Of a stretch of 64,000 nucleotides of DNA, positions 142 through 27,240 are shown piece after piece (within the stretch, counting starts at the first letter, position 1; every line of letters starts with the position of its first letter). The notes below the pieces were generated by a model. That model ran no database searches, had not been told where the DNA came from, and saw only the letters and a program-made list of their open reading frames with translations. The stretch comes from Oscillospiraceae bacterium (GTDB lineage: Bacteria; Bacillota; Clostridia; Oscillospirales; Oscillospiraceae), in assembly GCA_017538965.1 (NCBI GenBank), contig JAFYHU010000036.1, forward strand, positions 1 through 64,000, given 5' to 3'. The position numbers were made by a program, and so were the translations under genes.

Positions 142-297
142 CTCCCAATCAGCTTATCCCGTTTCGCGGCAAAAGAAACAGCTGCCCCCGTCGTGGCGAC
201 TGCTGCCGCGAATTGTCATATGGGGAAAATAGCAAAACAAAAGCGCGGCGGAGAAACACAGGTGCGAGGGACCAGTTTCTCTTCCGCGCAATTGCAG
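142..297 (+). repeat. Two-hairpin interspersed repeat, copy A
   Basis: The left arm runs 142-213 and the right arm 243-297. The left arm opens with CTCCCAATCAG and closes on itself through TTCGCGGC (163-170) and GCCGCGAA (204-211). The right arm has a GCGCGG/CCGCGC outer stem and an inner GAGAAAC/GTTTCTC stem, and ends in CAATTGCAG. Both arms recur near 5.5, 9.9, 20.2, 23.0 and 27.1 kb. It is non-coding. Confidence 0.8.
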
Positions 298-343
298 AAA
301 GATAAGGTCGGGCTGCAAGATGATTGGAGCAAGCCCTTCATCA

Positions 344-419
344 TGGTCGGAGTGCGGAGATTTGAACTCCGGGCCTCTTGGTCCCGAACCAAGCGCGCTA
401 CCAGCTGCGCTACACCCCG
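344..419 (-). tRNA. tRNA-Pro(CGG)
   Basis: On the minus strand a full cloverleaf folds. The 7-bp acceptor is CGGGGTG/CACTCCG with one wobble pair, followed by a D arm, an anticodon stem CTTGG/CCAAG with loop TTCGGGA (anticodon CGG), a T arm with GTTCAAA, and an encoded CCA. It decodes the proline codon CCG. The gene stands alone between two copies of the interspersed repeat. Confidence 0.93.
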
Positions 420-517
420 TCAAGCTCTGCTATTATAAACTATTTTATGAAAAAGTCAATAGCAAAAATCAGGCGTGAACAAGAGATAGTTTTTATTTTT
501 CTCCCCGTTCCGAGCTC

Positions 518-571
518 CTGCAGCTGCGCGGCAGGGAACATGGTCCCTCGCTTTTCACTCCTGCGCCGCGC
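518..571 (-). repeat. Interspersed repeat, solo right arm (copy G)
   Basis: Read on the minus strand, this is only the right arm of the repeat family. It has a GCGCGGC/GCCGCGC stem with an inner CAGG/CCTG extension, the conserved GCGAGGG loop and the terminal GCAG. No left arm accompanies it. The rest of the 420-736 gap holds the lon upstream region and no other gene that I can see. Confidence 0.7.
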
Positions 572-690
572 TTCCGGTTGATCATATGAACGGGTCAAAA
601 ACAGAAAGAGCTGCTGCAAAAGCACAAAAAGCGAAGCTTTGTTTATATAAAAGTATTAACAAAAACTTCATGAAAGCATCCGAAAATGTC

Positions 691-711
691 GTATACTGGG
701 CATCAGTATAC
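691..711. promoter_or_regulatory. Perfect palindrome upstream of lon
   Basis: GTATACTG and CAGTATAC are perfect 8-bp inverted repeats separated by GGCAT, ending 26 nt before the lon start. A -10-like TATACT (692-697) falls inside the left half, with a weak TTCATG 19 nt upstream. A protein bound here would block the promoter, so this is a candidate operator. It resembles neither the CtsR nor the HrcA (CIRCE) site. Confidence 0.45.
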
Positions 712-736
712 TCGATGAAAATGGAGGATGATCATT

Positions 737-3046
737 ATGACAGTAATTCCGGTATATAACAAGCTGATTGCACCGGATTCGGATGTGTATTTCCGCAGAG
801 ACCAGTTCCGGTATCTGGCGGGGAATGTGAATGTAGATGAGAAAGTGATTCTGTTGATTTCGAAGAAGGACGAATCGCGTGCGGAGCGGAGTGAGGACAG
901 CTTTTATCCCATCGGTCTTTCCGGCGTGGTGGCGGAAATCAGCAATGACGGCTATGCCGTGGTGCGTGCCGGCGGGCGGGTGAACGTGGAGAGCGTGTTG
1001 ATCAACCGCGACAAATCGATTTCCCTGATGACCAGCAGGCGGAACGATGTGCAGGATCTCCCGGAGGAGGAAGCAAAGGAAAAGCTCCGCCAGGCCGGGG
1101 AAGCCGTCAAGGAGTTCTCTCAGGGATACCAGTGGGGCACTGCGGCAGTGACCTTTGTGAACCAGATGCGGTCGCTGGGTACGCTGGCAGGCATGCTGTC
1201 GATCTGGATGACGGCATCGAACGAAGAATACTATGAAATCCTGGCTGAGGACAGCTGCCGCAAACGTGCGGAGCTGATGGAAAAACTGATCTATGAGTTC
1301 CTGGAAGTCACCAAGGTGACGAATGACGCCAATTCGGCGCACCAGAAGGAATATCAGGATATCTATAAGGAATCGGCCATCAAGAAGCAGCTGGAGTATC
1401 TGCAGCGCGAGCTGGACGAACTGCATCCCGAACATGTATCGGATATCCGGAAGTTCGAGATGAAGATTGAAGAATCCGGCATGAACGAGACGGCACGATC
1501 GGAAGCCAACAAAGTTCTGAACCGGCTGAAGCAGGAGGGAAGCAAGTCGCCGGAATACGGCATGCTGTACGACTATCTGGATTTTCTTACCTCGCTGAAC
1601 TGGAAAAAGACCGAGCCGGAGATCATCGATCTGGAGGAAGCGCGAGAGGTGCTGGAAGAAGACCATTACGGTCTGAAGAAGGTCAAGCGCCGCATCATCG
1701 AGCAGATCGCCGTTATGAATCTGAAGCGCGAACAGTCGGGATCCATCCTGCTCTTTGTCGGCGCCCCCGGCACCGGAAAAACCAGCATCGGCCGCAGCAT
1801 TGCCCGCGCGCTGAAGCGGGAATATGTGCGGATCAGTCTCGGCGGCGTTCGCGACGAGGCGGATATCCGCGGTCATCGGCGCACCTATATCGGGGCGATG
1901 CCCGGACGGATCATGGACGGCATTCAGAAAAGCGGAGCCTCGAACCCGGTCGTGGTGCTGGACGAGGTGGATAAACTCTATTCCTCGTTCAACGGCGACC
2001 CGGCCAGCGCACTGCTGGAGGTCCTCGACCCCGAACAGAATGACAGTTTTACCGATCACTATATGAATGTGCCCTATGACCTTTCGGATGTGCTGTTTAT
2101 CTGCACGGCGAATACGACCGACACGATTCCGGAACCGCTTCTGAACCGGATGGAGACGATCCAGTTTGAGGGCTATACGCCGATCGAAAAGCTCTGCATC
2201 GCCCGCGAGCATTTGCTGCCCGGCGCCATGAAGGCCATGGGAATCGGTCCCGGACAGATCGAGATATCCGATGAAGTTATCCGAACCCTGATTTCGGATT
2301 ATACGCAGGAAGCCGGCGTGCGCGGTTTGCGCAAGCGGATCGATTCGCTGTGCCGAAGCGCGGCCGTAGAGCTGGCAGGCAAACCGGAAACAGTTTTCAC
2401 GATTTCTCCCGACCAGCTGCGCGAGGATCTGGATATGCGCCCGGTGCGCCACTCCCGTGTGCCGGAACGGCAGAAACCGGGTGTGGTGACAGGGCTTGCA
2501 TGGACTCAGTCGGGCGGCGAAATCCTGTATATCGAATCGCTGTTTACCAAAGGAAACGGCGAAGTCAGGACGACGGGGAAACTGGGCGATGTGATGAAGG
2601 AGTCGGCCATGATCGCCGTCAGCCTGGTGAAGAGCATGTTCCCGGGAAAAGCGAAACAATTCAAGGAAAATGATCTGCACATTCACGTGCCCGAAGGCGC
2701 CGTCCCGAAAGATGGTCCCTCGGCCGGCGTCACGATGACTACGGCGGTCGCGTCGCTGGTAACGGGGATTCCGTTCCCGGCCGACTGGGCAATGACGGGC
2801 GAAGTCTCGCTGCGCGGAGCGATCACGGCCATCGGCGGGCTGCCTGAAAAACTGCTGGCGGCGCATCGGGCCGGTGTGCACCGGGTTTTTATTCCTGAGG
2901 AGAATCTGGAAGACCTTCGGGATGTGCCCGATGAGGTGAAAAACGCGATGGAGATTACCGCGGTATCCGAGGTTTCCCAGCTGCTGACGATGGCCGGAAT
3001 CCTGAAAAATGCGGAAAACCAGAAAAAAGATGTGGAGAAACTGTAA
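737..3046 (+). CDS. lon: ATP-dependent Lon protease (endopeptidase La)
   Basis: Cytoplasmic AAA+ protease that unfolds and degrades damaged or regulatory proteins. The 769-residue product has an N-terminal substrate-binding domain with a coiled region, Walker A GAPGTGKT at 342-349, Walker B VVVLDEVDK, and a C-terminal protease domain. Catalytic Ser662 lies in DGPSAG and Lys705 in GGLPEKLLAA; the 43-residue spacing is that of the Ser/Lys dyad of LonA enzymes. An in-frame ATG at 728 also exists, but GGAGG (723-727) sits 9 nt before 737, which I prefer. The gene is single, with a palindrome in front that may be an operator. Confidence 0.96.
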   Translation: MTVIPVYNKLIAPDSDVYFRRDQFRYLAGNVNVDEKVILLISKKDESRAERSEDSFYPIGLSGVVAEISNDGYAVVRAGGRVNVESVLINRDKSISLMTSRRNDVQDLPEEEAKEKLRQAGEAVKEFSQGYQWGTAAVTFVNQMRSLGTLAGMLSIWMTASNEEYYEILAEDSCRKRAELMEKLIYEFLEVTKVTNDANSAHQKEYQDIYKESAIKKQLEYLQRELDELHPEHVSDIRKFEMKIEESGMNETARSEANKVLNRLKQEGSKSPEYGMLYDYLDFLTSLNWKKTEPEIIDLEEAREVLEEDHYGLKKVKRRIIEQIAVMNLKREQSGSILLFVGAPGTGKTSIGRSIARALKREYVRISLGGVRDEADIRGHRRTYIGAMPGRIMDGIQKSGASNPVVVLDEVDKLYSSFNGDPASALLEVLDPEQNDSFTDHYMNVPYDLSDVLFICTANTTDTIPEPLLNRMETIQFEGYTPIEKLCIAREHLLPGAMKAMGIGPGQIEISDEVIRTLISDYTQEAGVRGLRKRIDSLCRSAAVELAGKPETVFTISPDQLREDLDMRPVRHSRVPERQKPGVVTGLAWTQSGGEILYIESLFTKGNGEVRTTGKLGDVMKESAMIAVSLVKSMFPGKAKQFKENDLHIHVPEGAVPKDGPSAGVTMTTAVASLVTGIPFPADWAMTGEVSLRGAITAIGGLPEKLLAAHRAGVHRVFIPEENLEDLRDVPDEVKNAMEITAVSEVSQLLTMAGILKNAENQKKDVEKL

Positions 3047-3064
3047 AAAACACGGGATGCAGAA

Positions 3065-3093
3065 TTGCATGAACCCGGATATTCTGGTATAAT
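3065..3093 (+). promoter_or_regulatory. SigA-type promoter of the secreted acidic protein gene
   Basis: TTGCAT (3065-3070) and a perfect TATAAT (3088-3093) are separated by 17 bp, about 80 nt upstream of the 3174 start. A weak GGG...CCC hairpin from lon read-through overlaps the -35 side. Confidence 0.6.
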
Positions 3094-3173
3094 AAACAGA
3101 AGGAAAATCAAAAGTACTTCCGCATACGGCGTCTTTCCGTACGCCGACAAGTCCGAACAGGAGGAGTTTTACG

Positions 3174-5483
3174 ATGAAACGTAGATTCAGACACTCTGCA
3201 GTGCTGTTCTGTGCCATGATTCTGATTGTTGCCCTGCTGGCGGGGATCAGTCCGGCATCCTATGCCGCGCCCCTGAAAGGCTATGACAGCATCAGCAAGG
3301 CGCCTTCTCTGGCGGATAAAGCCGGGGAGCGGGCGAATGCCCTGGAGGCGATGGCTGCAGAGCATGCTGCTGCTGTCGAGGCGACGGAGGAAACGCCGCT
3401 GAAGGACAGACAGCTGATGGACGAAGTCATGAAGGAAGCCGAAGCGGCAGAAGCCCTCGCAGAGGGACCGGGTTCGGCAGAGCCGGAAGAGTCGGCTGCA
3501 GCGGGACCCGTTTCGACAAAACCGGAAGACACATCGGTTGTGGGACCTGCTTCTGAAGAAGCGGAAGAGACGCCGGCAGCGGGGCCGTTTTCGGCCGAAT
3601 CGGAAGAGCCGGCCGTTCCGGAGTTCAGTATGGCCGATATTCTGAAAGCAAATGATCCGGCTGTGCTTCTTGAGAAATATGACGGCATCGGGTTTATTCA
3701 GATGTCCCAGTCGGAATATGGCCAGTACTGCGGAAACTATACGGCTTTCAGAACCGACGGAATGGTTTATATGGAATATCCGGAAGAAGACGCTGCAGCT
3801 GCATGGGATACCTATGACTGGACAGATTTTGACTGGGATCTGATCGAGGACTGGGATGACTGGGCAGAATTCGGCAGTCCTGACTGGGACGGCTATGAAG
3901 CCTGGGACGGCTATGACGAATTATTCGGCTATGAGCCGGCCTGTGCTTATCTGTTTACCAAAAACAACTGCTATCAGCTGACCCAATACGATGAAGAGGA
4001 CAGCGACTTCGAGATCACCTGGTATGCCTATCCGGGAGAGAAACAGGAAAGCTATGATCTGGATGCCATATTCCCGAAGCTGGACAACGATTCGACGCTG
4101 GCGGAAGAGATCACCGATGTCCGGCTGGAGAATGGTCAGCTGTGTGTGACAACGGTCGGCGATGCGCCTGCGTTCTGTGAGATTTCTCCGCTGTCCAAGG
4201 AGATCGGATCCCAGATTCGCTATTATCTGGATCCGGATACGCTGGAGATTCTCTATTTGGAGTGCTCGGTGCTGCTGGCAGACGGGGACAGCATTCCGTT
4301 TATGACGCAGATTGCGATCTATGGAGAGCCGGATTCCGACCTCTTCTGGACCATGCTGGAGAAGGCGGTTGTCTATGAACTGGAGGCTTATAAGAATCCC
4401 AGAACCGTGACCGTGATCTATGATCCGGGGACCGATCTGGAAGAAAGCTGCTCCCGCATCGTGGAGAAGGGAGATTACCTGACCACGTACTTTAAGGATG
4501 GATATACGTTGTACGAAGATGAAAACAAAACCATGCCGTTTATGGGCAGCGATGCGCAGCAGGATGTAAAGATCTATGCTTTTTATGGAGAGGATGAGAC
4601 GGACAATTACGGGCTTTGGACGGAAGGTGCAGATCCCGATGCCTTGCCTGCAGAGAACGATCTCGATTATGCAAAGATCAGCAGTATGATCTATGAGGCG
4701 AACAAACTGGATGCGATCTTCCGGAATCATGATTCGGTGGAATACTGCCTCCTGTTTGATGAGAATCTGCTTCCGAACCGGCTTGACTATATCTATGAAA
4801 CCCCCGATATGGCCTACAGCGAGACACGGGATGCCGCCCTGTATGCCACAAAGGACAGCTTCTATCAGATGTGGCTGAATGATGACGTTTCGGACCTCTT
4901 CTATACCTTTGATTTTGTGAACGGATATGATCCGCACCTTAATGCGGGGTATGAGATTATGCCTGCGACCGAGGTGGAATGGTTTAATCCTGACTGCGAG
5001 ACTCCGCTGGATGTTACCTTGGAAGACGGCGTGATCTACCTGAGCTCTGAGTACAATGAGGATCTGAGCCGGAAATTCATCCGGGAGTGGCTGAATGAGG
5101 ATTATAACGGACAGATCGTAACGAGCATGATCTGCGCCGACCCTGAGAGCTATGAGCTGCTGGCGCTGCTGTACACGGTGACAGATCCGAACGGCGAGGA
5201 AAGAATGCCTCTGATCTTCAGCATCAACTATGACGTTTCCGAACCTCGTGCCTGCCGCAATCTGCGTGCCATTGCCGAGCGCTCGGCAGAGCAGACGGCC
5301 GATCTGAAGATTGTCATGAATCCGGGGACCGACTCGGAAACGGAACAGAGCATGACGGTTCCCATCGGGAGCACCGTGATCTATGTATCCGATGCGGGTA
5401 TGACTCTTTACGAAGATGCCGGATGCAGCATTCCCGCCGCCCGCTGGGATCACGTTTCCAGCCAGACATTCTACCTCAACTGA
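3174..5483 (+). CDS. Secreted acidic protein with C-terminal repeat modules
   Basis: Function unknown. The 769-residue product begins with a Sec signal peptide (basic start, hydrophobic core, likely cleavage after PASYA). Residues about 95-145 are a low-complexity Pro/Glu/Ala/Ser linker with three or four imperfect repeats of the type GPxSxExEE. Residues about 210-255 are extraordinarily rich in Trp, Asp and Tyr. Two copies of a beta-type module carry a shared pattern (V/I-x-Y/N-PGTD...TLYED), one near residues 405-475 and one at the C-terminus; they resemble the bacterial repeats of cell-wall and InlB-like proteins. No LPXTG or transmembrane anchor is seen. GGAGGAG lies upstream of the ATG. 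A surface or exported role is inferred. Confidence 0.75.
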   Translation: MKRRFRHSAVLFCAMILIVALLAGISPASYAAPLKGYDSISKAPSLADKAGERANALEAMAAEHAAAVEATEETPLKDRQLMDEVMKEAEAAEALAEGPGSAEPEESAAAGPVSTKPEDTSVVGPASEEAEETPAAGPFSAESEEPAVPEFSMADILKANDPAVLLEKYDGIGFIQMSQSEYGQYCGNYTAFRTDGMVYMEYPEEDAAAAWDTYDWTDFDWDLIEDWDDWAEFGSPDWDGYEAWDGYDELFGYEPACAYLFTKNNCYQLTQYDEEDSDFEITWYAYPGEKQESYDLDAIFPKLDNDSTLAEEITDVRLENGQLCVTTVGDAPAFCEISPLSKEIGSQIRYYLDPDTLEILYLECSVLLADGDSIPFMTQIAIYGEPDSDLFWTMLEKAVVYELEAYKNPRTVTVIYDPGTDLEESCSRIVEKGDYLTTYFKDGYTLYEDENKTMPFMGSDAQQDVKIYAFYGEDETDNYGLWTEGADPDALPAENDLDYAKISSMIYEANKLDAIFRNHDSVEYCLLFDENLLPNRLDYIYETPDMAYSETRDAALYATKDSFYQMWLNDDVSDLFYTFDFVNGYDPHLNAGYEIMPATEVEWFNPDCETPLDVTLEDGVIYLSSEYNEDLSRKFIREWLNEDYNGQIVTSMICADPESYELLALLYTVTDPNGEERMPLIFSINYDVSEPRACRNLRAIAERSAEQTADLKIVMNPGTDSETEQSMTVPIGSTVIYVSDAGMTLYEDAGCSIPAARWDHVSSQTFYLN

Positions 5484-5497
5484 GATAAGTATTCTCT

Positions 5498-5725
5498 GCT
5501 CCCAATCGACTTGACCCGTTTCGCGGCCAGGGAAAGCATCTGTCCCTGTCGAACCTCCTTTTGCTGCGAATGAGTTAGTGGGTGCGATGGATTGATTAAC
5601 CCTGTGGAAAACTGTCACAAGGTAACTGATGAAGCGTTCTCGCGCCTGCACGCGAAACCCGGAAAAACCAGCGCGGCGGGGAAACGTTTGTGCGAGGGAA
5701 AAGGTTATTATCCGCGCAATTGCAG
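5498..5725 (+). repeat. Two-hairpin interspersed repeat, copy B
   Basis: The left arm (5498-5571) has TTCGCGGC paired with GCTGCGAA (one G-T wobble) and an inner CAGGGA/TCCCTG stem. The right arm (5671-5725) has GCGCGG/CCGCGC and ends in CAATTGCAG. The arms are separated by about 100 bp that other copies do not share. It fills most of the 5484-5841 gap; nothing coding is seen there. Confidence 0.8.
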
Positions 5726-5841
5726 GAATTGAAATCGGGATATAAACTCGGAGTATAAAGACAGCGGGACAGAGATAGAAAGCGACGAGAAAAGCCCAAA
5801 ATCAGACAGCGGGACGATGGGAGGACATCTGAGGCGGATTT

Positions 5842-7296
5842 GTGAAAAGCATCTTTTTTAAAAACTTTGCCATGACGGCGATGCTGCTTGCCATCTGCTT
5901 TCTGCTTCTGTCCGTCAGCTTTATCGGAATCGGCAGAACCTATCTGATCGAAGACTACCGCCGGGATATGATGGAGAGCACGAACGAGGTGGCGCATGCG
6001 GCTTCGGCCATTGCCAGGACCAGTTCGATGAATGACTGGTCTCTGAGCATGATCATCAGTTCGATCTCTGGCGCGACCGGAAACCATATCTTTATCACGG
6101 ATGAGCAGGGCGTGATTATTACCTGCTCGGACAAGCTGCCCTTCTGCGAGCATATCGGGAAACAGATTCCGGAAGACATCCTGGAACAGCTGGAGCTTAC
6201 CGGGACCTGTGAGCAGTTTTCCAATCTGGACGGCCTGTATCCTGAAAACCGGTATCTGGCAGCCAGGCAGATTACGGAAGAGGCAGACGGAGACCTGCTG
6301 GGTTATTGCTTTATCACTTCTCCGATCTCCAATATGCTCGGAACCTGGACGAATTATCTGACCTGGTCGATCATTGCGCTTTCCGTGGTTTCTCTCGTGT
6401 CGATGCTGGCGGTCATGGTCTATACCAAACGGATGGCGCGGCCGCTGGATGAGATTGCGGCTGCCTCCCGGAAGTTTGCGAGAGGGGATTTTTCGCACCG
6501 CGTCCGTCAGACCGCCGATACCACCGACGAGATGGGGACCCTGATCGATTCGTTCAACAAGATGGCCGATTCTCTGGGAAAGGCCGAAAACAGACGCAGC
6601 GAATTTATTGCGAACATTTCCCATGAGCTGCGAACGCCGATGACGACGATTTCGGGGTTTGCGGACGGCATTCTGGACGGCACCATCCCGCCGGAAGACG
6701 AAAGAAAATATCTGATTTCCATTCGCGATGAAACCCGGCGGCTTTCGAGGCTCGTCAAGGATATGCTGGAAGTGTCGCGCATGAAATCATGGGCGGCGGA
6801 TGAATCCAGGCGCAGCGTCTTTGATCTGACCGAACTGATTCTTCAGACAATGCTGAGCTTTGAGAGCCGCGCGACAAAAAAGAATCTGGATGTAGATCCG
6901 CAGCTGCCGGACAGCCATCTGATGGTATACGCGGACAAGGATGCCATTACGCAGGTTCTTTACAACCTGCTGGACAATGCGGTCAAATTTGCCAAGCCGG
7001 GCACCTGCCTGGTGGTAAGGCTGTACAAGGACTTCGGGAAGGCCTATGTATCGATCAAGGATTACGGCGAGACGATCCCGCCGGATGATCTTCCCTTTAT
7101 TTTTGACCGTTTTCATAAGTCCGACCGCTCGCGCAGCCTGGACAAGGAAGGCGTCGGGCTGGGACTGTATCTGGTCAAGGCCATTATCAACGCGCATGAC
7201 GAGGATATCGCGGTGCGCAGCGAAGACGGCATGACCGAATTTGTATTTACGCTGACGCTGGCGGACGGCGTCAAACAGGGAAGAGAACCGGCATGA
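5842..7296 (+). CDS. Membrane sensor histidine kinase (orphan)
   Basis: Phosphotransfer sensor in the cytoplasmic membrane. The 484 residues comprise TM1 (about 7-30), an extracytoplasmic sensor domain with four cysteines, TM2 (about 172-195), a HAMP linker, a dimerisation domain with the phospho-accepting His261 in HELRTP, and an ATPase domain with N box NLLDNA near 375 and a GVGLGLYL glycine-rich box. It starts on GTG after GAGGCGG. No response regulator gene is adjacent. It overlaps the HtrA gene by four bases (ATGA), so it probably shares a transcript with HtrA and the YgjP-like gene, which hints at an envelope-stress role. The partner regulator must be elsewhere. Confidence 0.9.
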   Translation: MKSIFFKNFAMTAMLLAICFLLLSVSFIGIGRTYLIEDYRRDMMESTNEVAHAASAIARTSSMNDWSLSMIISSISGATGNHIFITDEQGVIITCSDKLPFCEHIGKQIPEDILEQLELTGTCEQFSNLDGLYPENRYLAARQITEEADGDLLGYCFITSPISNMLGTWTNYLTWSIIALSVVSLVSMLAVMVYTKRMARPLDEIAAASRKFARGDFSHRVRQTADTTDEMGTLIDSFNKMADSLGKAENRRSEFIANISHELRTPMTTISGFADGILDGTIPPEDERKYLISIRDETRRLSRLVKDMLEVSRMKSWAADESRRSVFDLTELILQTMLSFESRATKKNLDVDPQLPDSHLMVYADKDAITQVLYNLLDNAVKFAKPGTCLVVRLYKDFGKAYVSIKDYGETIPPDDLPFIFDRFHKSDRSRSLDKEGVGLGLYLVKAIINAHDEDIAVRSEDGMTEFVFTLTLADGVKQGREPA

Positions 7297-9160: not shown

Positions 9161-9178
9161 AGTCTGTTTATATTCCGT

Positions 9179-9809: not shown

Positions 9810-9872
9810 ATTCACAGACGATACCTCCAGAATTATACATTTTGGTTTTTCCAGGATACAGAATGGGAGGAT

Positions 9873-10032
9873 GCTCCCAATTACCTTGTGCTGTTTCGCG
9901 GTCAGGGGAAGCATCTGCCCCTGTCGAACCTCCTTCTGCCGCGAATAAATGGTATACGAAAGTCCTGCTTCTAAAAAACGCGGCGGGGAAACGTTCGTGC
10001 GAGGCGGAAGGCCGATATCCGCGCAATTGCAG
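9873..10032 (+). repeat. Two-hairpin interspersed repeat, copy C
   Basis: Compact copy. The left arm (9873-9947) has an inner CAGGGG/CCCCTG stem, where copy B has CAGGGA/TCCCTG. The right arm (9979-10032) has CGCGG/CCGCG and ends in CAATTGCAG. It lies between thrH and the pseudouridine synthase gene and holds no gene. Confidence 0.82.
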
Positions 10033-10058
10033 AGACCCGAGAACGGACACCATAATCA

Positions 10059-11021
10059 TCAAGAAAAGTATTTTGCCACAAAAGGAATATCCTCGCGGTT
10101 CAGGGAGAATTCGCGGCCGCGCAGGTCATTCAGGATGCCGGCGTCGGTGGGGAAGTCAAAGCAAATGCGCCAGGAATACAGCGCCTGCCCGGATTCGTGA
10201 TACTTCCGGTTTACCTGCTCGCGACCGTATTTCCCGTCGCCCAGCAGCGGCCAGCCGGCATGGGCCATCTGGACGCGGATCTGGTGCGTGCGCCCGGTCA
10301 GCAGCCTGCATTCGACCAGCGAAAGACCGTTTTTGCTCTCGAGCACGCGATATTCTGTTGCGGCGTGCCGCGAGGCGGGTTCCGGCCTGCTTTTCACATA
10401 GACCTGGTTTTTGACCGCGTCTTTGAAAAGTTCGTTCTCCAGACAGCCGGACGCCGGTTTCGGTTTCCCGCAGACGACGCACAGATAACTCTTGCTGATC
10501 TCGCGATCCCGGATTTTTTCATTCAGGATTCGAAGTGCCTCGGCATTTTTGGCGGCAATCACGATCCCGCCCGTATTGCGGTCGATGCGGTTGCACAGCG
10601 CCGGAGCAAAGGCGTTTTCATCCCGGCTGTTCCATTCGCCCTTCTGTGCGAGATAGGCCTGAATATTTGCGATGAGGGTGTTATAGTCCCATTTTCCGGC
10701 GCTGTGGCAGAGCACTCCGGGCTTTTTGTCGACCAGCAGGATGTTCTCGTCCTCATAGAGAATCTGCAGACGGGGTGCGGAAATCTTCCGCCAGGCATTG
10801 TTCTCATTCGGCGCTTCAAAGAATTCATCCGCGATATAGAGGCTGAGCTCATCGCCGACCTGAAGACGCGTGTCCTGCCTGCCCGCTTTGCCGTTCAGCT
10901 TGATGCGCTTGAGGCGGATGTACTTGTGGAGCAGGCTGTCCGGCAGGAGGGGTACGGCCTTGGCGACAAAACGGTCCAGACGCTGACCTTCATCGTTTTT
11001 TCCGACAGTCAGAACTTTCAT
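10059..11021 (-). CDS. RluC/RluD-family 23S rRNA pseudouridine synthase
   Basis: Isomerises uridines of 23S rRNA to pseudouridine. The 320 residues comprise an N-terminal S4 RNA-binding domain (about 13-75) and a catalytic domain with Asp147 in RIDRNTGG, the counterpart of the usual RLDxxTSG. Later motifs include GRTHQIRVQMAH and PLLGDGKYG. The Asn-Thr-Gly-Gly variant is seen in the RluC-like group of Firmicutes. Which positions it modifies cannot be told. The gene is transcribed away from the DUF4342 gene, whose terminator lies just behind its start. Confidence 0.9.
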   Translation of the reverse strand: MKVLTVGKNDEGQRLDRFVAKAVPLLPDSLLHKYIRLKRIKLNGKAGRQDTRLQVGDELSLYIADEFFEAPNENNAWRKISAPRLQILYEDENILLVDKKPGVLCHSAGKWDYNTLIANIQAYLAQKGEWNSRDENAFAPALCNRIDRNTGGIVIAAKNAEALRILNEKIRDREISKSYLCVVCGKPKPASGCLENELFKDAVKNQVYVKSRPEPASRHAATEYRVLESKNGLSLVECRLLTGRTHQIRVQMAHAGWPLLGDGKYGREQVNRKYHESGQALYSWRICFDFPTDAGILNDLRGREFSLNREDIPFVAKYFS

Positions 11022-11040
11022 GTTTCCTCAAAGTAAGAAA

Positions 11041-18007: not shown

Positions 18008-18026
18008 GAGGAGGACGGTGGCGGAT

Positions 18027-18428: not shown

Positions 18429-18442
18429 CGAGGAGGAAGCAC

Positions 18443-20179: not shown

Positions 20180-20189
20180 GGAATTGTTC

Positions 20190-20403
20190 GCTCCCAATCA
20201 GCCTGCCTCGTTTCGCGGCCAAGGGAAGGCACAGCCCCTGACCAAGCAGCTGCGGCCGCGAATGGTTCATAGATAGATTCCTGCCGCAGAAGCCGAGTCT
20301 GCAACGAATGCCGAAGAGGTCTCGCCTGCAGACAACAAGAACTGTAAAACGCGGCGCAGGAGTTTGGAAGCGAGGGAAACCGTTCCCTGCTGCGTAAATG
20401 CAG
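20190..20403 (+). repeat. Two-hairpin interspersed repeat, copy D
   Basis: The left arm (20190-20262) opens with GCTCCCAATCAG and has TTCGCGGCC/GGCCGCGAA. The right arm (20350-20403) has CGCGGC/GCTGCG with an inner GCAGG/CCTGC stem. An unrelated insert of about 85 bp separates the arms. It fills most of the gmk-rpoZ gap. Confidence 0.78.
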
Positions 20404-20476
20404 ATACCTCAGATCGGGCATAAAATGCCTATAAAATAATATTCAAAAAGTTGAAAACAGAAAGGAAAAACCCACC

Positions 20477-20665: not shown

Positions 20666-20690
20666 AAAGATACTAACGCGGAAACCTGGG

Positions 20691-22931
20691 ATGTTTGCCG
20701 GAGTTGCTCTTGCGGGACTGCAGTACGCGATTGACCGTCCTTACGATTATCGAATTCCCGAAAACCTGCGGGGAAGTGTCCGACCGGGGGTTCGGGTTTT
20801 CGTGCCGTTCGGCAGCGGAAACCGCGTGACGGAGGGATTTGTACTCTCCGTTGCGGAAGAAAGCAGTTACCCGAACTGCAAGGACATTCTGCGTACGGCC
20901 GACGAGCAGCCCCTGCTGGACCGCGATCAGCTGCAGCTTGCGTATTTCATGCGAGAGCGCACCTTCTGTACGGTCTATCAGGCGGCAAAGACCATGCTGC
21001 CGGCAGGCTTCTGGCTGGATAAGAGCGGGAACCGCAGAAAGAAAGACGCGAAGAGAGAACTGGTCAGGCTTTCGATTTCTCCCGATGAAGCGGCTGAACT
21101 TGCCGAAGAGAAGCGCAGGCGTTCGCCCAGACAGGCGGAGATTCTCGAGCTGCTGTGCAGTTTCGAGGTGCTCTCGGTATCGGACCTGCTTTATCACACC
21201 GGCGGAAGCCGCGCGGTTCTGAACCGGCTCAAAGAGCTCGGCCTTGTGGAGACTTTTTTTCAGGAGATTCTGCGCCGGCCGACGCCGGAAGCGGAGGAGA
21301 GACTTCCGCTGCCGGAACTGAACGAAGAACAGGAAGCGGTTTTCAGGGGAATTCTGGCCGATTCCGAACAGAACGGCAGCGGGGTTTCCCTGATTGCGGG
21401 TGTTACCGGAAGCGGAAAAACCAGCATCTATGCCCATCTGATCGCCGGGTGTCTGGAACGGGGAAAGAGTGCGATCCTGCTGGTACCCGAGATTTCCCTG
21501 ACGCCGCAGATGCTCTCTCGCTTCAGCGCCTGGTTCGGAGAAGAAGTTGCCGTGATGCACAGCGGGCTTTCCGCCGGAGAGCGCTGTGATGAATGGAAGC
21601 GTATCCAGAGGGGGCAGGCGCGTGTCGTGATCGGCACGCGGAGCGCGGTTTTCGCGCCGGCTGTGGATCTCGGCCTGATTCTGATCGATGAGGAACAGGA
21701 AGACAGTTACCGCTCGGAATCAAACCCCCGTTATCATGCGCGCGATATCGCCAGATTCCGCTGCCATCAGGCCGGCGCACATCTGGTTTTGGGCTCGGCG
21801 ACGCCCGATCTCACGAGCCGCTATCGTGCCCAGATCGGAGAATACGGCTTTTTCTGTCTGCGGGAACGCTACAATCTCCGGCCGCTGCCCGAGGTGCATC
21901 TTGTCGACATGAAGCAGGAGCTTCGCGACGGAAACACTTCTCTCCTGAGCGCACCGCTCCGGGAGGCCATTCTGGATCGCATTGAACGGGGAGAACAGTC
22001 CATTCTCTTTCTGAACCGCCGCGGGACCAATAAGGTGGTTGCCTGCAGCGTATGCGGATATACCTTCCGCTGTACGCACTGCTCGGTCTCCATGACCTGG
22101 CATGCCAATCGGAGAAGGTTGATCTGCCACTACTGCGGGAAAAGCAGCCGCCTGCCCGAGGTATGCCCCGAATGCGGCGGGAGCTTCCGCTTTTTGGGCG
22201 CCGGTACGCAGATGGCGGAGGAAGAACTGCGAAAAACCTTCCCGGACATCGAGATTCTGCGCGTGGATGCTGATACCGTGAGTGCCGCGGTCCCGCATCG
22301 CCGGCTCTTCCGGCGCTTTACGGAGGAAAAGATCCCGGTGATGATCGGGACGCAGATGATCGCCAAGGGACTGGATTTCGACAATGTCACGCTGGTCGGC
22401 GTTCTGTCGGCCGACCAGAGCCTGTACTGCAATGACTTCCGTGCCGGCGAGCACACCTTTTCGCTGCTGACACAGGTGATCGGACGCTGCGGACGCGGGG
22501 AGAAGAACGGAGAAGCCTATATCCAGACCTTTACGCCGGACAACGAGATAATAAAGCTCGCGGCCAGGCAGGACTACGAGTCGTTTTACCGGCAGGAGAT
22601 CGGGATGCGCAGGCTGCAGAACGCGCCGCCGTTTTCCGACCGCATCGCGTTTTCCGCCTCGGGAACCGACGAAGGCCGCGTCATTCGGGGTCTGCAGCGG
22701 GCAAAGACGACGCTGCATGAAATGCTCTCTCCCGAAGACGCTGCCGAGATTCTCGGCCCCGTGCCCTTTGCCGTCGTCAAGATGAACGACCGCTACCGCT
22801 ACCGCCTGTTCCTGAGCTGCCGCGTTAATAAGCGCATCCGGCAGATTCTCTCTGCCGTCCTGACTGCCTGCAGCCGCGACAGTGAAAACCGGAAGCTCAG
22901 TTTTTACATCGAAAACGACCCGAGGGATTGA
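20691..22931 (+). CDS. priA: Primosomal helicase PriA
   Basis: Restarts stalled replication forks by unwinding DNA and loading the primosome. The 746 residues have an N-terminal 3'-DNA-binding domain, Walker A GVTGSGKTS, a helicase box IDEEQEDSY (family DEEHxxSY), GSATPD, and eight zinc-binding cysteines (CSVCGYTFRCTHC and CHYCGKSS...CPECGG). The C-terminal helicase motif QVIGRCGRG follows. The Shine-Dalgarno sequence is weak, suggesting coupling to rpoZ. Confidence 0.95.
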   Translation: MFAGVALAGLQYAIDRPYDYRIPENLRGSVRPGVRVFVPFGSGNRVTEGFVLSVAEESSYPNCKDILRTADEQPLLDRDQLQLAYFMRERTFCTVYQAAKTMLPAGFWLDKSGNRRKKDAKRELVRLSISPDEAAELAEEKRRRSPRQAEILELLCSFEVLSVSDLLYHTGGSRAVLNRLKELGLVETFFQEILRRPTPEAEERLPLPELNEEQEAVFRGILADSEQNGSGVSLIAGVTGSGKTSIYAHLIAGCLERGKSAILLVPEISLTPQMLSRFSAWFGEEVAVMHSGLSAGERCDEWKRIQRGQARVVIGTRSAVFAPAVDLGLILIDEEQEDSYRSESNPRYHARDIARFRCHQAGAHLVLGSATPDLTSRYRAQIGEYGFFCLRERYNLRPLPEVHLVDMKQELRDGNTSLLSAPLREAILDRIERGEQSILFLNRRGTNKVVACSVCGYTFRCTHCSVSMTWHANRRRLICHYCGKSSRLPEVCPECGGSFRFLGAGTQMAEEELRKTFPDIEILRVDADTVSAAVPHRRLFRRFTEEKIPVMIGTQMIAKGLDFDNVTLVGVLSADQSLYCNDFRAGEHTFSLLTQVIGRCGRGEKNGEAYIQTFTPDNEIIKLAARQDYESFYRQEIGMRRLQNAPPFSDRIAFSASGTDEGRVIRGLQRAKTTLHEMLSPEDAAEILGPVPFAVVKMNDRYRYRLFLSCRVNKRIRQILSAVLTACSRDSENRKLSFYIENDPRD

Positions 22932-22955
22932 GAGGCTGAGCCCGTTCAAACGTCT

Positions 22956-23118
22956 CTGCAATTACGCGGATATCGGCCTGCCGCCTCGCACGAACGTTTC
23001 CCCGCTGCGTTTTTAGAAGGGTACTATCGTATACCATTTATTCGCGGCCGCAGCTGCTTGGTCAGAGGCTGTGCCTTCTCTGGTCGCGAAACGGTACAGG
23101 CTGTTGAGGGAACGAGCC
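22956..23118 (-). repeat. Two-hairpin interspersed repeat, copy E (inverted)
   Basis: Same family on the minus strand. The right arm (22956-23010) ends in TAATTGCAG and the left arm (about 23040-23118) has TTCGCGACC/CGGCCGCGAA and an inner CAGAG/CTCTG stem. The inner stem differs from copies B and C on both sides, so pairing is kept. It lies between priA and def. Confidence 0.78.
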
Positions 23119-23164
23119 TGTTCTCAGGACTCTGTAATTATGCGGTTTGGAAAGGAGTACTCCT

Positions 23165-23698
23165 ATGGCTCTGAGAAAGATACTGACAGACGAAGATCCC
23201 GGGCTGCACAAGAAATGCCGGCCGATCACCGCCTTTAACGAACGCCTGTTTCAGCTGCTTGACGATATGCAGGAGACGCTGGCGAATGCTGACGGCGTCG
23301 GCCTTGCCGCACCGCAGGTCGGCGTGCTGCGCCGGGCGGTGCTGGTCCTGGAGACCAATGTTCCGGAAGGGGAAGAACCCTATGTGATCGAGCTGATCAA
23401 TCCCGAGATCATCGAGACCGAGGGCGAACAGGAAGGCGCGGAAGGCTGCCTGAGCGTCCCCGGGGAATTCGGCGTTGTCAAACGTCCTGCCAAAGTCACG
23501 GTTCGGGCGCAGGATCGAAACGGCAATTTCTTCGAGGTCACCGGGGAAGGTCTGACGGCCCGCTGCTTCTGCCACGAAACGGACCATCTGGAAGGCATCG
23601 TCTTTACCGAAAAATGCGAACGCATGCTGACGGAAGAGGAGATTCAGGCGCTTGGCGGCGAACACGGCGGCGAAAACGATGGGGAGGAGACGGACTGA
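23165..23698 (+). CDS. def: Peptide deformylase
   Basis: Removes the N-formyl group from new proteins. The 177 residues contain the three PDF motifs: GVGLAAPQVG, EGCLSVPG (metal-ligand Cys) and CHETDHLEG (HExxH). A short acidic, Gly-rich tail follows. AAAGGAG stands 8 nt upstream of ATG 23165; an upstream in-frame ATG would add six unneeded residues. It is separated from fmt by one base. Confidence 0.95.
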   Translation: MALRKILTDEDPGLHKKCRPITAFNERLFQLLDDMQETLANADGVGLAAPQVGVLRRAVLVLETNVPEGEEPYVIELINPEIIETEGEQEGAEGCLSVPGEFGVVKRPAKVTVRAQDRNGNFFEVTGEGLTARCFCHETDHLEGIVFTEKCERMLTEEEIQALGGEHGGENDGEETD

Positions 23699-23699
23699 G

Positions 23700-24617
23700 A
23701 TGCGGGTCGTCTTTATGGGTACCCCCGATTTTGCCGAAGCCTCGCTGGAGCGGTTGATTGCAGACGGTTTTGAGATCTGCGCGGTCTATACCCAGCCGGA
23801 CAAGGCAAAGGGGCGCGGCATGGAGCTTTCCTTTTCTCCGGTCAAGAGCTGCGCGCTGCGGCACGGGATCCCGGTCTTTCAGCCGCACACGTTTCGCGAT
23901 CCTGAGGTGATCGCGCAGCTGCTGTCGCTCTCGGCGGACATCATCGCGGTGGTGGCTTACGGGAAAATCCTGCCGGACGAAGTCCTGCAGGCAGCGCCGC
24001 TCGGCGCCGTCAACCTGCACGGATCCATTCTTCCGAAATACCGCGGCGCCGCTCCGATCCAGTGGGCTGTGCTGAACGGGGACAGGGAGACGGGCGTGAG
24101 CACCTTTCATCTGGTTCCCGAGATGGACGCGGGCGATCTTATCTATATTGAGAAGACGGAAATCGGCGAGTTCGAGACCTCGGGAGAACTGTATGACCGG
24201 CTGAAGGTCATCGGGGCAGGGCTCCTCTCCCGGACGCTGCGCGATCTGGACAGCGGCACAGCGCCCCGGACGCCGCAGAACGATGCCGAGGCGAGCTATG
24301 TCACGCGTCTGGACAAGTCCCTTTCGCCGATCGACTGGAACAAGATGCCGCGCGAGATCGTCAAATGGATTTACGGGCTGCAGCCCTGGCCCTGCGCGAC
24401 CATGGAACTGGATGGGACGACCGTGAAGGTCTTCGGTGCGCAGTACAGTGACAGAATAGCCGGTGATTTGCCGGGGAAAATTGTTTCGGCAGGGAAGCAG
24501 GGCATTGAAATTGCCTGCGGAGACGGACATTGTTTAATTATTAACGAGCTGCAGGCGCCCGGAAAGAAGCGCATGTCCGCGGCGGACTATCTGCGCGGGC
24601 ACCCGCTGAAGTCATGA
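23700..24617 (+). CDS. fmt: Methionyl-tRNA formyltransferase
   Basis: Formylates initiator Met-tRNA using 10-formyl-THF. The 305 residues start MRVVFMGTPDFA and include NLHGSILPKYRGAAPI (catalytic Asn/His) and the C-terminal OB-like domain (ALQPWP-type: GLQPWPCATM). GGGGAGGAG lies within the end of def. It overlaps rsmB by ATGA, so def-fmt-rsmB-rlmN are translationally linked. Confidence 0.96.
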   Translation: MRVVFMGTPDFAEASLERLIADGFEICAVYTQPDKAKGRGMELSFSPVKSCALRHGIPVFQPHTFRDPEVIAQLLSLSADIIAVVAYGKILPDEVLQAAPLGAVNLHGSILPKYRGAAPIQWAVLNGDRETGVSTFHLVPEMDAGDLIYIEKTEIGEFETSGELYDRLKVIGAGLLSRTLRDLDSGTAPRTPQNDAEASYVTRLDKSLSPIDWNKMPREIVKWIYGLQPWPCATMELDGTTVKVFGAQYSDRIAGDLPGKIVSAGKQGIEIACGDGHCLIINELQAPGKKRMSAADYLRGHPLKS

Positions 24618-25966
24618 GTTCGAAGCGTGGTGGCGGAAAGAACCAGGACTCCGCGGAGAGCATGAGCTCGGAATCCCGCAAAGCCATGAGTTCGGCAGCG
24701 GTTTCGCCGGCCAGGGAGAACGCGCTGCAGATTCTGACGCGCTACCGCAGAAGCGGGGAACTGACGGCATCCGACTGCCCGCAGGCGGATAACCGCCGGC
24801 TTGCCGATTCGATCGCCTTCGGCACCGTTCAGAACGGCAGATACTTGGACGCGGTGCTGGAATCCTTTGTCCGCTCGGGGCTCAGGAGTCTGCATCCGAC
24901 GGTGCGCGAGATTCTGCGCCTGTCGGCCTTTCAGATCCTGTTTCTGGACCGGGTTCCGGATTCTGCGGCCGTGAACGACGCCGTCACGCTGTGCAGAGAG
25001 CAGAAATGCGGCTTTGCCGCCGGTTTTGTCAACGCGGTTCTGCGCAATCTGAGCCGGAAAAAGGACGGCATCGTCGTTGCGGATCCCGCTGTGCGCTTCA
25101 GCCATCCGGACTGGATCATGGATCGTCTGGTGCAGGAAAACGGGCAGGCCTTTGCGGAGGCCTTTCTCGAAGCCAATCAGAAGCTTCCCGACCTTCGTCT
25201 GCAGATCTGTACGGACCGCTGCGGCGCAGACGATTACCGGGCGATGCTGGAGAAAGCGGGAGTCGAGGTTCTGGATCAGAACCCGGAACTTGGGTCCGTT
25301 CTGATCCGGCCCTGCAAGGTCACCGATCTCCCGGGCTATGAAGAGGGTTTCTTCTACGTACAGGACGATGCCGCAAGGACGGCTGTCGCAATCTGCGGAC
25401 TGCAGCCGGGCATGCGGGTTTTGGATGCCTGTGCGGCGCCCGGCGGCAAGAGCGTCGCCGCCGCGATGGCCGGGGCGGAAGTGCTCGCCTGCGACCTGAG
25501 CGAGAAACGCTTGCAGCGCTGCCGCGAAAATTTTTCCCGCCTGAGACTGGAGATTCCCGTCTGCCGGCAGGATGCCGCCGAATTCCGTCCGGAGTGGGAG
25601 AATTCCTTTGACTGCGTGCTGGCGGACGTGCCCTGTACCGGCACCGGAATTATCCGAAAGCATCCGGAGATCCGGGACAAGACGGAAGAGGAGCTGTTCT
25701 CCCTGCTTCCGATCCAGCAGGCGATTCTCCGCAATCTCGCGCGCTATGTGAAGCCCGGCGGCCTGCTGCTGTATTCCACCTGCTCGGTCCTGCGTGACGA
25801 AGACGAAAACCAGGTTAGTCAATTTCTTAACGAACAAGACGATTTCATTATTGACGCTCCATCGGCACGCAAAGGATATTCCTGCCAAAACGGCATGCTG
25901 CGCTCGTGGCCGCAGCAGAACGGAAACGACGGCTTCTTTGCCGCAAAGCTGAGGAAAAAGCCATGA
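24614..25966 (+). CDS. rsmB: 16S rRNA m5C967 methyltransferase RsmB
   Basis: SAM-dependent methylation of C967 of 16S rRNA. The 450 residues have an NusB-like N-terminal domain (about 30-165) and a Rossmann methyltransferase domain with DACAAPGGKS, VLADVPCTGTG (first catalytic Cys) and LLYSTCSV (second Cys). Residues 1-30 are a Ser/Lys-rich extension not needed by the family; the ATG at 24614 overlaps the fmt stop. It overlaps rlmN by ATGA. Confidence 0.94.
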   Translation: MSSKRGGGKNQDSAESMSSESRKAMSSAAVSPARENALQILTRYRRSGELTASDCPQADNRRLADSIAFGTVQNGRYLDAVLESFVRSGLRSLHPTVREILRLSAFQILFLDRVPDSAAVNDAVTLCREQKCGFAAGFVNAVLRNLSRKKDGIVVADPAVRFSHPDWIMDRLVQENGQAFAEAFLEANQKLPDLRLQICTDRCGADDYRAMLEKAGVEVLDQNPELGSVLIRPCKVTDLPGYEEGFFYVQDDAARTAVAICGLQPGMRVLDACAAPGGKSVAAAMAGAEVLACDLSEKRLQRCRENFSRLRLEIPVCRQDAAEFRPEWENSFDCVLADVPCTGTGIIRKHPEIRDKTEEELFSLLPIQQAILRNLARYVKPGGLLLYSTCSVLRDEDENQVSQFLNEQDDFIIDAPSARKGYSCQNGMLRSWPQQNGNDGFFAAKLRKKP

Positions 25967-26988
25967 CGGACATTCTCTCGCTGACCCCGGAAGAACTGAA
26001 AGAGGAGATTCTTGCGCTCGGCCTGCCTGCCTTCCGCGCAAAGCAGATCAGCGGCTGGCTGAAGACCGGCGTACGGGACTTCTCCGAGATGTCGAACCTC
26101 CCGAAAGAGTTACGGGAATCATTGAAGGAACGCTTCAGCCTGACGGCGCCTGTGCTGCTGAGAGCCCAGACCTCCGAGCTGGATCAGACCGGCAAATTTC
26201 TCTGGGGACTTTCGGACGGCAACTGCGTCGAGACCGTCCTGATGCGGTACCGTTACGGCAATTCCGTCTGCATCTCCAGCCAGGTCGGCTGCCGGCAGGG
26301 CTGCGCCTTCTGCGCGTCAACCATCGGCGGCCTGATCCGCCCGCTGACGGCGGGAGAGATGCTGGACGAGGTGCTGTTCACCGAAAAAGAGAACGACGTC
26401 AGCGTTTCGAACGTTGTGCTGATGGGAATCGGAGAACCGCTGGACAATCTGGACAACGTGCTCCGCTTTCTGCATCTTGTCAGCCATCCGGAAGGGCGCA
26501 ACCTGAGCCTGCGGCATATCACGGTTTCGACCTGCGGTCTGCCGGAGGGAATACGGAGACTCAGCGAGGAGAAGCTGCCGATCACGCTTTCGGTATCGCT
26601 GCATGCGCCGGATGATGAGACCCGATCCAGAATCATGCCTTCCAACTGCGGCATTCAACGGCTGGCAGAGGTGTGTGAGGAGTATTTCGCGCGTACCGGG
26701 CGGCGGCTTTCGTTTGAATATGCGATGATCGCCGGCGTCAATGACAGCGACCGGCAGGCGGAGCTGCTGGCCGGGCTTGCCAGACGGCTCGGCGCCCATG
26801 TCAATCTGATCCCGCTGAATTATGTCGCGGAACGCGGCCTGAAGCCGTCTTCACCGGCGGTGATCCGGCGCTTTCAGGGCCTGCTGGAGGAGAAGGGCGT
26901 GAATGTGACCGTCCGGAGAAGCCTGGGCGGGGACATCGACGCCTCCTGCGGCCAGCTGCGGCGGAAACACATGAATAAACAGCAATGA
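25963..26988 (+). CDS. rlmN: Dual 23S rRNA/tRNA A2503/A37 methyltransferase RlmN
   Basis: Radical SAM enzyme that makes 2-methyladenosine in 23S rRNA and some tRNAs. The 341 residues contain the radical SAM cluster CxxxCxxC as CRQGCAFC, GMGEPLDN-like MGIGEPLDN, SLHAPDD, and the C-terminal catalytic cysteine in GxDIDASCGQL. ATG 25963 overlaps the rsmB stop. Confidence 0.95.
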   Translation: MTDILSLTPEELKEEILALGLPAFRAKQISGWLKTGVRDFSEMSNLPKELRESLKERFSLTAPVLLRAQTSELDQTGKFLWGLSDGNCVETVLMRYRYGNSVCISSQVGCRQGCAFCASTIGGLIRPLTAGEMLDEVLFTEKENDVSVSNVVLMGIGEPLDNLDNVLRFLHLVSHPEGRNLSLRHITVSTCGLPEGIRRLSEEKLPITLSVSLHAPDDETRSRIMPSNCGIQRLAEVCEEYFARTGRRLSFEYAMIAGVNDSDRQAELLAGLARRLGAHVNLIPLNYVAERGLKPSSPAVIRRFQGLLEEKGVNVTVRRSLGGDIDASCGQLRRKHMNKQQ

Positions 26989-27014
26989 GCAGTCGGGCGC
27001 ACGACTTCGGCTTT

Positions 27015-27240
27015 CTGCAACTGCGCGGCAGGAAAGCCGATTCCTCGCACGAAACCCCTGCGCCGCGCATAAGAAAAGGAAATGTTAAATCATTTGTTAG
27101 CGGCAGAAGCTGTTTCGAGAGGGGCAGATGCTTCTCTGGCCGCGAAACGGAATCACCTGATTGGGAGCGCCCGTACGGAGGTTCTGCAATTACGCGGAAT
27201 TGAACCCGCTCCCTCGCACGAAGCTTTCCCCGCCGCGTTT
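27015..27240 (-). repeat. Interspersed repeat, compound copy F (inverted)
   Basis: On the minus strand there are two right arms flanking one left arm: 27184-27240, left arm 27098-27168 (GCTCCCAATCAGGTGA... with CCGTTTCGCGGCC), and 27015-27068. The latter has the long GCGCGGC/GCCGCGC plus CAGG/CCTG stem. So a second right arm lies on the outer side of the left arm, as if two copies had fused. It fills the rlmN-prpC gap of 310 bp. Confidence 0.78.

What the first reader, a model, noticed from the sequence alone, without database searches (positions are those of the whole stretch)
142..27240. Undescribed two-hairpin interspersed repeat, seven or more copies with compensatory changes
Copies at 142-297, 518-571 (solo arm), 5498-5725, 9873-10032, 20190-20403, 22956-23118 and 27015-27240 share a left arm (GCTCCCAATCAG, TTCGCGGC...GCCGCGAA) and a right arm (CGCGG...GTGCGAGG...CCGCG-YAATTGCAG). 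The inner left stem reads CAGGGA/TCCCTG in B, CAGGGG/CCCCTG in C and CAGAG/CTCTG in E: both sides change together. All copies are intergenic and all lie in the core half of the window. This could be a MITE- or REP-like element or a family of structured RNAs.
Basis: seen in the sequence. Interest (0 to 1): 0.78.

Follow-up and report, generated by a model that had tools for sequence, protein, structure and literature searches.

The report
Mobile terminator-like mosaic repeat
A rumen-type bacterium's genome carries over a hundred copies of a two-part hairpin repeat that has recently inserted just behind genes, even inside a housekeeping operon, where one half looks like a ready-made transcription stop signal.

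Summary
The repeat is real. The window holds 6 L (73 nt) and 8 R (54 nt plus tail) modules. In 54 fetched loci plus the window, 55 of 59 L have an R downstream on the same strand; the R tail motif occurs 131 times genome-wide, control 2. One of 100 other congeners scanned, G120 (probably rumen MAG RUG282), is also rich. Copies C, E and F are absent from the collinear G120 locus. At E, 29 of 29 congeners measured have 20-67 nt where this genome has 233; at F, 17 measurable ones have -4 to 37 nt against 310: E and F are insertions gained here. Copies favour gene 3' ends and avoid divergent gaps. R read backwards is a hairpin plus T-run (56 of 82). Best reading: a non-autonomous REP/BOX-like mosaic element carrying a portable terminator (function inferred). 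It lacks the GT[AG]G tag, L and R are not inverted copies, and its mobiliser is not shown.

The parts
141..213 (+). Copy A, L module
   Evidence: nhmmer E 1e-17
238..314 (+). Copy A, R module with tail (core 244-297)
   Evidence: nhmmer E 1e-16; CM match at C25:238-314, 92.7 bits
501..576 (-). Solo R module with tail (core 518-570)
   Evidence: nhmmer E 2e-7
5498..5571 (+). Copy B, L module, about 15 nt after the stop of the upstream gene
5666..5742 (+). Copy B, R module with tail
   Evidence: no module detected at the collinear sister locus
9873..9946 (+). Copy C, L module
   Evidence: collinear sister gap 17 nt against 236 nt here
9973..10049 (+). Copy C, R module with tail; its reverse strand is in sense with the minus-strand pseudouridine synthase gene (10059-11021) that ends just before it
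20190..20263 (+). Copy D, L module
   Evidence: the sister has an L in the opposite orientation in the same gap
20344..20420 (+). Copy D, R module with tail (GCAG subtype)
22939..23015 (-). Copy E, R module (core 22956-23009), 25 nt after the priA stop, terminator sense
   Evidence: gap 20-67 nt in 29 of 29 other congeners measured
23040..23112 (-). Copy E, L module; what looks like a degenerate R start follows at about 23114-23149 (by eye)
26998..27073 (-). Copy F, first R module (core 27015-27067), after the rlmN stop, terminator sense
   Evidence: gap -4 to 37 nt in 17 measurable congeners
27096..27168 (-). Copy F, L module
27167..27243 (-). Copy F, second R module (core 27184-27237); its tail abuts the L head

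Best explanation
It is a lineage-specific, non-autonomous, modular interspersed repeat (REP/BIME- and BOX-like) that spreads through the genome and settles just downstream of stop codons. SHOWN: two conserved hairpin modules; in this genome L is nearly always followed by R on the same strand; high copy number in two congeners; lineage-specific insertions, two of them polarised by many congeners, between priA and def and between rlmN and a PP2C phosphatase gene, where relatives have short or overlapping junctions; a bias to gene 3' ends and against divergent gaps. SHOWN AS SEQUENCE, INFERRED AS FUNCTION: the reverse strand of R is a GC-rich hairpin followed by a T-run, and most classifiable solo R copies place it in sense orientation behind a gene, so a new copy would act as a portable intrinsic terminator that ends or attenuates the upstream transcript. 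INFERRED ONLY: mobilisation in trans by a resident transposase acting on the hairpins, most likely a single-strand-specific (HUH/Y1) enzyme, since hairpins are kept, arrays form head to tail and no target duplication was recognised.
For: Modules and copies. Sister family in G120. Empty sites. Context: convergent 24, codirectional 27, divergent 1 of 52 classified clusters (10 of 62 unclassified); against 113 gaps of at least 60 nt in contig C76 (29 divergent, 63 codirectional, 21 convergent) Fisher p is 7e-5 for divergent and 3e-4 for convergent. R tails face a stop in 38 and a start in 16 (31 of 85 not classifiable); L heads 33 and 10 (16 of 59 not classifiable); solo R 17 and 3 (10 of 30 not classifiable). 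T-run after the reverse R hairpin: at least 5 T in 7 nt in 56 of 82, background 1.5%; forward sense: 0 of 80 have even 4. Hairpin constraint; R folds better than mononucleotide shuffles (mean z -2.7 forward, -2.2 reverse).
Against: No transposase with matching ends shown, no target duplication recognised. In G120 the order is not always L then R: there, 10 L follow an R directly and 10 precede one (pairs listed). In the rows from G120, G032 and G088 the 6 nt before R are AATATG in 11 of 27, so the T-run is less conserved there. 13 of 34 classifiable R tails of L-R units face a start codon, where the terminator reading does not help. L alone folds only weakly better than shuffled (mean z -0.86). 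The simple terminator scan over 22.8-27.4 kb did not flag copies E or F (it allows loops of at most 8 nt, R loops are longer). Gene context rests on a crude gene caller of my own. No transcript data.
Confidence: 0.62

Rival explanations
1. A REP-like family driven by its own RAYT: the 247-aa HUH-type gene at G000:C69:42339-43079 moves L/R copies.
For: Among 101 congener genomes close homologues (77% or more) were found only in G000, G120 and a G120-like contig of G032, the genomes with most of the strong R matches. R lies about 150 nt upstream of the gene in G000 and about 70 nt downstream in G120. NCBIfam NF047646 REP_Tyr_transpos gives 57.1 bits (cut-off 80).
Against: Its four nearest further relatives (45-50%) are framed by GGGACGGTTC.../...GAACCGTCCC inverted repeats (read by eye); among 80 RAYT loci R was found only in that of G120 itself and L in none. 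The G032 contig is about 98% identical to G120 over 1.9 kb, so probably contamination and not independent. G088 has a strong R (E 2.8e-13) and L matches but only a 21% partial homologue of the protein, though that genome is 85% complete and 7% contaminated. No GT[AG]G tag; L and R are not inverted copies. With R in about 3% of gene flanks (my estimate) two adjacencies could be luck.
Confidence: 0.22
2. A family of structured regulatory RNAs (3'-UTR elements or sRNAs) kept by selection on the RNA.
For: Compensatory changes in the outer L stem across species and at the base of R; conserved loop GTGCGAGG; gene-3' placement means they are probably transcribed.
Against: Both orientations relative to genes; positions C, E, F not shared with congeners examined; no Rfam match above gathering score (a sub-threshold RcsR1 match, 28.2 of 60 bits, overlaps the R copy of L050). 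The long-range helix between L head and R tail is no better in own pairs than in permuted ones in G000 (3688 of 5000 permutations as good, 48 units), and only weakly so in G120 (334 of 5000, 10 units). Hairpin conservation is equally expected of a single-strand DNA transposition substrate.
Confidence: 0.2
3. A MITE moved by a DDE transposase with GGGGCTGTCTCAAAA ends (IS1182-like; family name recalled, from no call).
For: About seven long-form copies (L030, L036, L044, L048, L050, L051, L057; by eye) carry a GGGGCTGT.TCA-like left end, and those not cut by a contig end a GAGACAGCCCC-like right end; a DUF772 transposase start lies beside such an end at L267.
Against: Most copies, including all in the window, lack these ends; the ends sit outside L and R; no target duplication was recognised; only the start of the transposase frame was seen.
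Confidence: 0.12

Closest known systems
BOX elements of Streptococcus pneumoniae (boxA-boxB-boxC; PMC3049150, passages seen)
   Same: Modular hairpin repeat of variable length, over-represented between convergent genes.
   Different: Different modules and lineage; here R occurs alone very often, and the reverse strand of R carries a terminator-like T-run. No BOX sequence was compared directly.
SPRITE of S. pneumoniae (Rho-independent-terminator-like repeat; PMC3049150, passages seen)
   Same: A dispersed repeat that looks like an intrinsic terminator and is over-represented between convergent genes.
   Different: SPRITE is AT-rich with one 18-bp duplex and a long uridine-rich tract; R has a GC-rich stem, is usually coupled to L, and belongs to another lineage.
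REP/BIME/REPIN elements with RAYT (PMC3116915, PMC8266576, PMC3733652, PMC6006769, passages seen)
   Same: Singlets, doublets and tandem arrays of imperfect palindromes, species-specific amplification, placement close to gene 3' ends, in convergent or unidirectional gaps.
   Different: No GT[AG]G guide at the hairpin foot; the doublet is two different modules on one strand, not an inverted pair; no proven cognate RAYT.

Membership tests
GTAG-type REP | GT[AG]G tetranucleotide at the hairpin foot | tested here: not met
   Read from the alignments: feet are AAAAG/ATAAAA before R and CAATTGCAG after it; neither R nor L consensus carries GT[AG]G there
GTAG-type REP | High-copy extragenic palindrome near gene 3' ends | tested here: met
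REPIN/BIME | Doublet of the same REP in inverted orientation | tested here: not met
   L against reverse R scores 14 against a shuffled mean of 13.3, 799 of 2000 shuffles as good; 55 of 59 L are followed by an R on the same strand (units were defined by strand)
REPtron (RAYT-associated) | RAYT gene flanked by the repeat | tested here: inconclusive
   Adjacent on one side in G000 and in G120, but relatives of the RAYT have other flanking repeats
MITE | Terminal inverted repeats | tested here: inconclusive
   Only about seven long-form copies show outer inverted repeats, by eye
MITE | Target-site duplication | tested here: inconclusive
   None recognised at sites C, E, F or at the sister R insertion, read by eye against a diverged sister
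Intrinsic terminator | GC-rich hairpin followed by a T-run | tested here: met
   Reverse R: at least 5 T in 7 nt in 56 of 82; hairpin. A short-loop terminator scan did not flag E or F
Intrinsic terminator | Transcription ends there in vivo | not testable with these tools
   No RNA data
BOX element | boxA/boxB/boxC sequence | not tested
   No BOX sequence compared; resemblance is of architecture only
Rfam RNA family | Match above gathering score | tested here: not met
   Only tRNA matches in the window; in 6 loci with copies only tRNA passes its gathering score

The most novel reading that the evidence does not exclude
A mobile element whose cargo is a transcription terminator. By landing behind stop codons inside ancestral operons it rewires transcription units wholesale, here cutting priA from def and rlmN from the PP2C phosphatase - PASTA kinase - RsgA genes in one lineage, moved by a HUH transposase group so far tied only to its own terminal inverted repeats.
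Probability: 0.25. Interest if true: 0.75.

Novelty: new variant of a known kind. Interest (0 to 1): 0.5.

Why it matters
The polarised insertions inside a conserved translation/signalling gene row, with uninserted counterparts in many congeners, make a direct test possible of whether small bacterial repeats act as portable terminators that reshape operons. The family also lies outside the phyla for which one survey lists GTAG repeats (Proteobacteria, Cyanobacteria, Chloroflexi, PVC group; PMC3733652, passage), and offers related repeats in two species for evolutionary work.

Tried and rejected
Long-range helix between the L head and the R tail: seen in the minimum-energy fold of one copy (L051), not of window copy A; own pairs are no better than permuted pairs in G000 and only weakly so in G120; not supported.

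L as an inverted copy of R (strict REPIN): suggested by eye, not supported by alignment of the consensus sequences.

A first structure string was out of register and is not used.

The cognate RAYT: first taken as strong because three genomes seemed to agree; weakened when relatives proved to have their own inverted repeats and the G032 contig proved near-identical to G120. On re-checking my calls I had left out G088, which has R and L but no close RAYT; I lowered that rival from 0.25 to 0.22 for this.

The small RAYT at L135:3236-3682 (149 aa): hugged by a GTAG-tagged palindrome, so R about 150 nt away is probably incidental.

IS1182-like ends: fit only the long-form copies.

Wider spread: a DNA search of 60 relatives, the own genome included, found only the own genome and one match in G032; among 197 genomes of the order the R model gave, besides the own genome, 3 with a match at E 0.01 or better, the best 7e-4. 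The RNA-model scans score at most 24-48 candidates per genome in these calls, so counts for rich genomes are lower bounds.

Literature: no description of this family found in the listings; passages only read in PMC3733652, PMC6006769, PMC3116915, PMC8266576, PMC2267715, PMC3049150.
Full report
WHAT WAS CHECKED. Profile searches show two modules. L is 73 nt (GCTCCCAATCAG...TTCGCGGC...GCCGCGAAT). R is 54 nt (CGCGGCG...GTGCGAGG...CCGCGYAATTGCAG), usually preceded by an A-rich stretch and followed by a tail like AAAGCTGAGANCGGG. The window holds 6 L and 8 R and nothing more better than E 0.2. A DNA search of the own genome gave 53 matches with copy A and 52 with copy C. In 54 fetched loci plus the window there are 59 L and 85 R hits, a few of them fragments. 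Pairing each L with the next R on its strand within 300 nt gives 55 L-R units, 30 other R and 4 L without such an R; one of the 55 (L033, gap 269 nt) spans another unit. Spacers run from 21 nt to well over 100 nt; by eye the longer ones carry other repeats. The motif CCGCGYAATTGCAG with up to one mismatch occurs 131 times in the 3.39 Mb genome, against 2 for the reversed pattern. In the one contig read end to end (C76, 289 kb) there are 5 L-R units and 5 further R hits, two of them partial.

WHERE ELSE IT OCCURS. Of 101 congener genomes (own included) scanned with a covariance model of R, 9 have a match at E 0.01 or better, but only the own genome and G120 are rich (47 of 47 scored candidates in each). 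The L model finds 48 of 48 scored candidates in the own genome and 42 of 48 in G120; 4 of 101 genomes match. In G120 the arrangement differs: 10 L directly follow an R and 10 precede one (pairs listed). G120 is taken to be the rumen MAG RUG282 because a contig has the same length, 76,902 nt. G088 has one strong R and partial or neighbouring L matches on short contigs. Weak R matches in G110, G023, G078, G019 and G069 may be distant relatives or chance. Two R in G032 lie on a contig about 98% identical to G120 over 1.9 kb, probably contamination. Among 197 genomes of the order, 3 besides the own reach E 0.01, the best 7e-4. No Rfam family but tRNA passes its gathering score.

IT MOVES. Window 642-31331 is collinear with G120:C92 in blocks of 68-86% identity. 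Copies C, E and F are missing there: gaps of 17, 26 and 17 nt between aligned blocks against 236, 220 and 299 nt here. Copy B has no detected counterpart (160 against 392 nt); at D the sister holds an L in the opposite orientation; copy A lies before the first aligned block and cannot be compared. Conversely the sister has an R in a 110-nt stretch where the window is uninterrupted at 18430/18431. Two sites were polarised. At E (priA to def) the gap is 20-67 nt in all 29 other congeners measured and 233 nt here (the 29 are those of the 40 other congeners searched whose loci were held). At F (rlmN to the PP2C gene) 19 loci were examined, G120 among them: 17 gave -4 to 37 nt, one gave a false value because the rlmN match ended early, one lacked the genes; the window has 310 nt. 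Gene names rest on Pfam for priA, def, rlmN, PP2C, PASTA kinase and RsgA; fmt and rsmB between them are assumed from the usual gene order (recalled) and were not tested. The simplest reading is a gain in this lineage at both sites. No target-site duplication was recognised by eye.

WHERE IT LANDS. With a crude gene caller of my own, 62 clusters give 24 convergent, 27 codirectional, 1 divergent and 10 unclassified. In C76, gaps of at least 60 nt are 21 convergent, 63 codirectional and 29 divergent. Divergent gaps are avoided (p 7e-5) and convergent ones favoured (p 3e-4). R tails face a stop in 38 and a start in 16 (31 of 85 not classifiable); L heads face a stop in 33 and a start in 10 (16 of 59 not classifiable). 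For solo R the count is 17 stop, 3 start, 10 not classifiable; for R of units 21, 13 and 21. Published REPs show the same placement (PMC3733652, passages), as do pneumococcal repeats (PMC3049150, passages).

THE TERMINATOR READING. On its reverse strand R is a hairpin usually followed by CTTTTT or TTTTAT: at least 5 T in the 7 nt after the foot in 56 of 82, against 1.5% of random 7-mers; on the forward strand 0 of 80 have even 4. At copies C, E and F the reverse R is in sense with the gene just upstream. Against this: among the rows from G120, G032 and G088 the T-run is less kept (AATATG before R in 11 of 27); a simple terminator scan with short loops does not flag E or F; 13 of 34 classifiable units point the other way. 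The function is an inference.

STRUCTURE. R hairpin: 83.8% of cells paired, 40 double-change cells against 23.0 shuffled, 0 of 500 as high; but fewer pairs with such changes than shuffles give (4 against 5.5), a slide by +2 columns scores as high on covariation (0.162 against 0.155), and most of the signal is one basal pair (GC 47, AU 26). L hairpin: no excess in the own genome; with 21 copies from G120 and G088 added to 28 own ones, 21 double-change cells against 7.4 and 5 pairs against 2.8, but a slide by -1 still gives 16 such cells. A helix joining the two ends of the element is not supported in the own genome and only weakly in G120. Relatedness inflates such counts, so I read them as support for hairpins, not as proof of an RNA function.

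WHO MOVES IT. Not shown. The best candidate by co-occurrence is a 247-aa HUH protein (NF047646 57.1 bits, below its cut-off of 80; Pfam Y1_Tnp 25.9 bits, nothing at E 1e-5) with an R on one side in both rich genomes. By length and its helix-turn-helix-like end it resembles TnpA_REP subclass 2.1, for which the authors found no REP nearby (PMC6006769, passages); I did not test that assignment. Its four nearest further relatives carry their own inverted repeats, and G088 has R and L but no close homologue. A second lead is a DUF772 transposase start beside GGGGCTGTCTCAAAA, a sequence that also bounds about seven long-form copies and forms a hairpin 3' of ten R tails (by eye).

VERDICT. A new modular repeat family of a known general kind (REP/BIME/BOX-like mosaic elements), untagged and made of two unlike modules, with clear lineage-specific insertions into a housekeeping gene row and a terminator-like half. 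Interesting mainly because the operon effect is directly testable.

Noticed in passing
L135:3140-3780 (G000:C64): A 149-aa REP-type tyrosine transposase gene (NF047646 64.7 bits, below cut-off 80) is hugged on both sides by GTAGGGAGCGATCCCCAGATCGCTCC palindromes, a GTAG-tagged REP-like family distinct from L/R that also appears in several L/R loci.
   Followed up: partly
L134:4230-5080 and L178-L181: A longer REP-type transposase gene has a GGGACGGTTC/GAACCGTCCC hairpin upstream, and four relatives are framed by such inverted repeats (TIRYT-like arrangement).
   Followed up: partly
window 31876-31916 and 33686-33726: The 3' end of a tRNA-Met gene is repeated (98%) 1.8 kb downstream, with a DUF434/DUF5616 gene between: perhaps a small element integrated at the tRNA, or a tRNA 3'-end duplication.
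   Followed up: no
L267:1480-1960 (G000:C70): GGGGCTGTCTCAAAA end beside a DUF772 transposase start; a similar sequence forms a hairpin directly 3' of ten R tails (by eye).
   Followed up: partly
G032:C64 (L146): A 5-kb contig about 98% identical to G120 over the 1.9 kb compared, in a genome of another species: probably a binning contaminant.
   Followed up: partly
L-R spacers of about 70 nt (e.g. L040, L053): One spacer type looks like a decayed reverse R fragment and by chance or not reads as a short ORF with two cysteines; seen by eye only.
   Followed up: no
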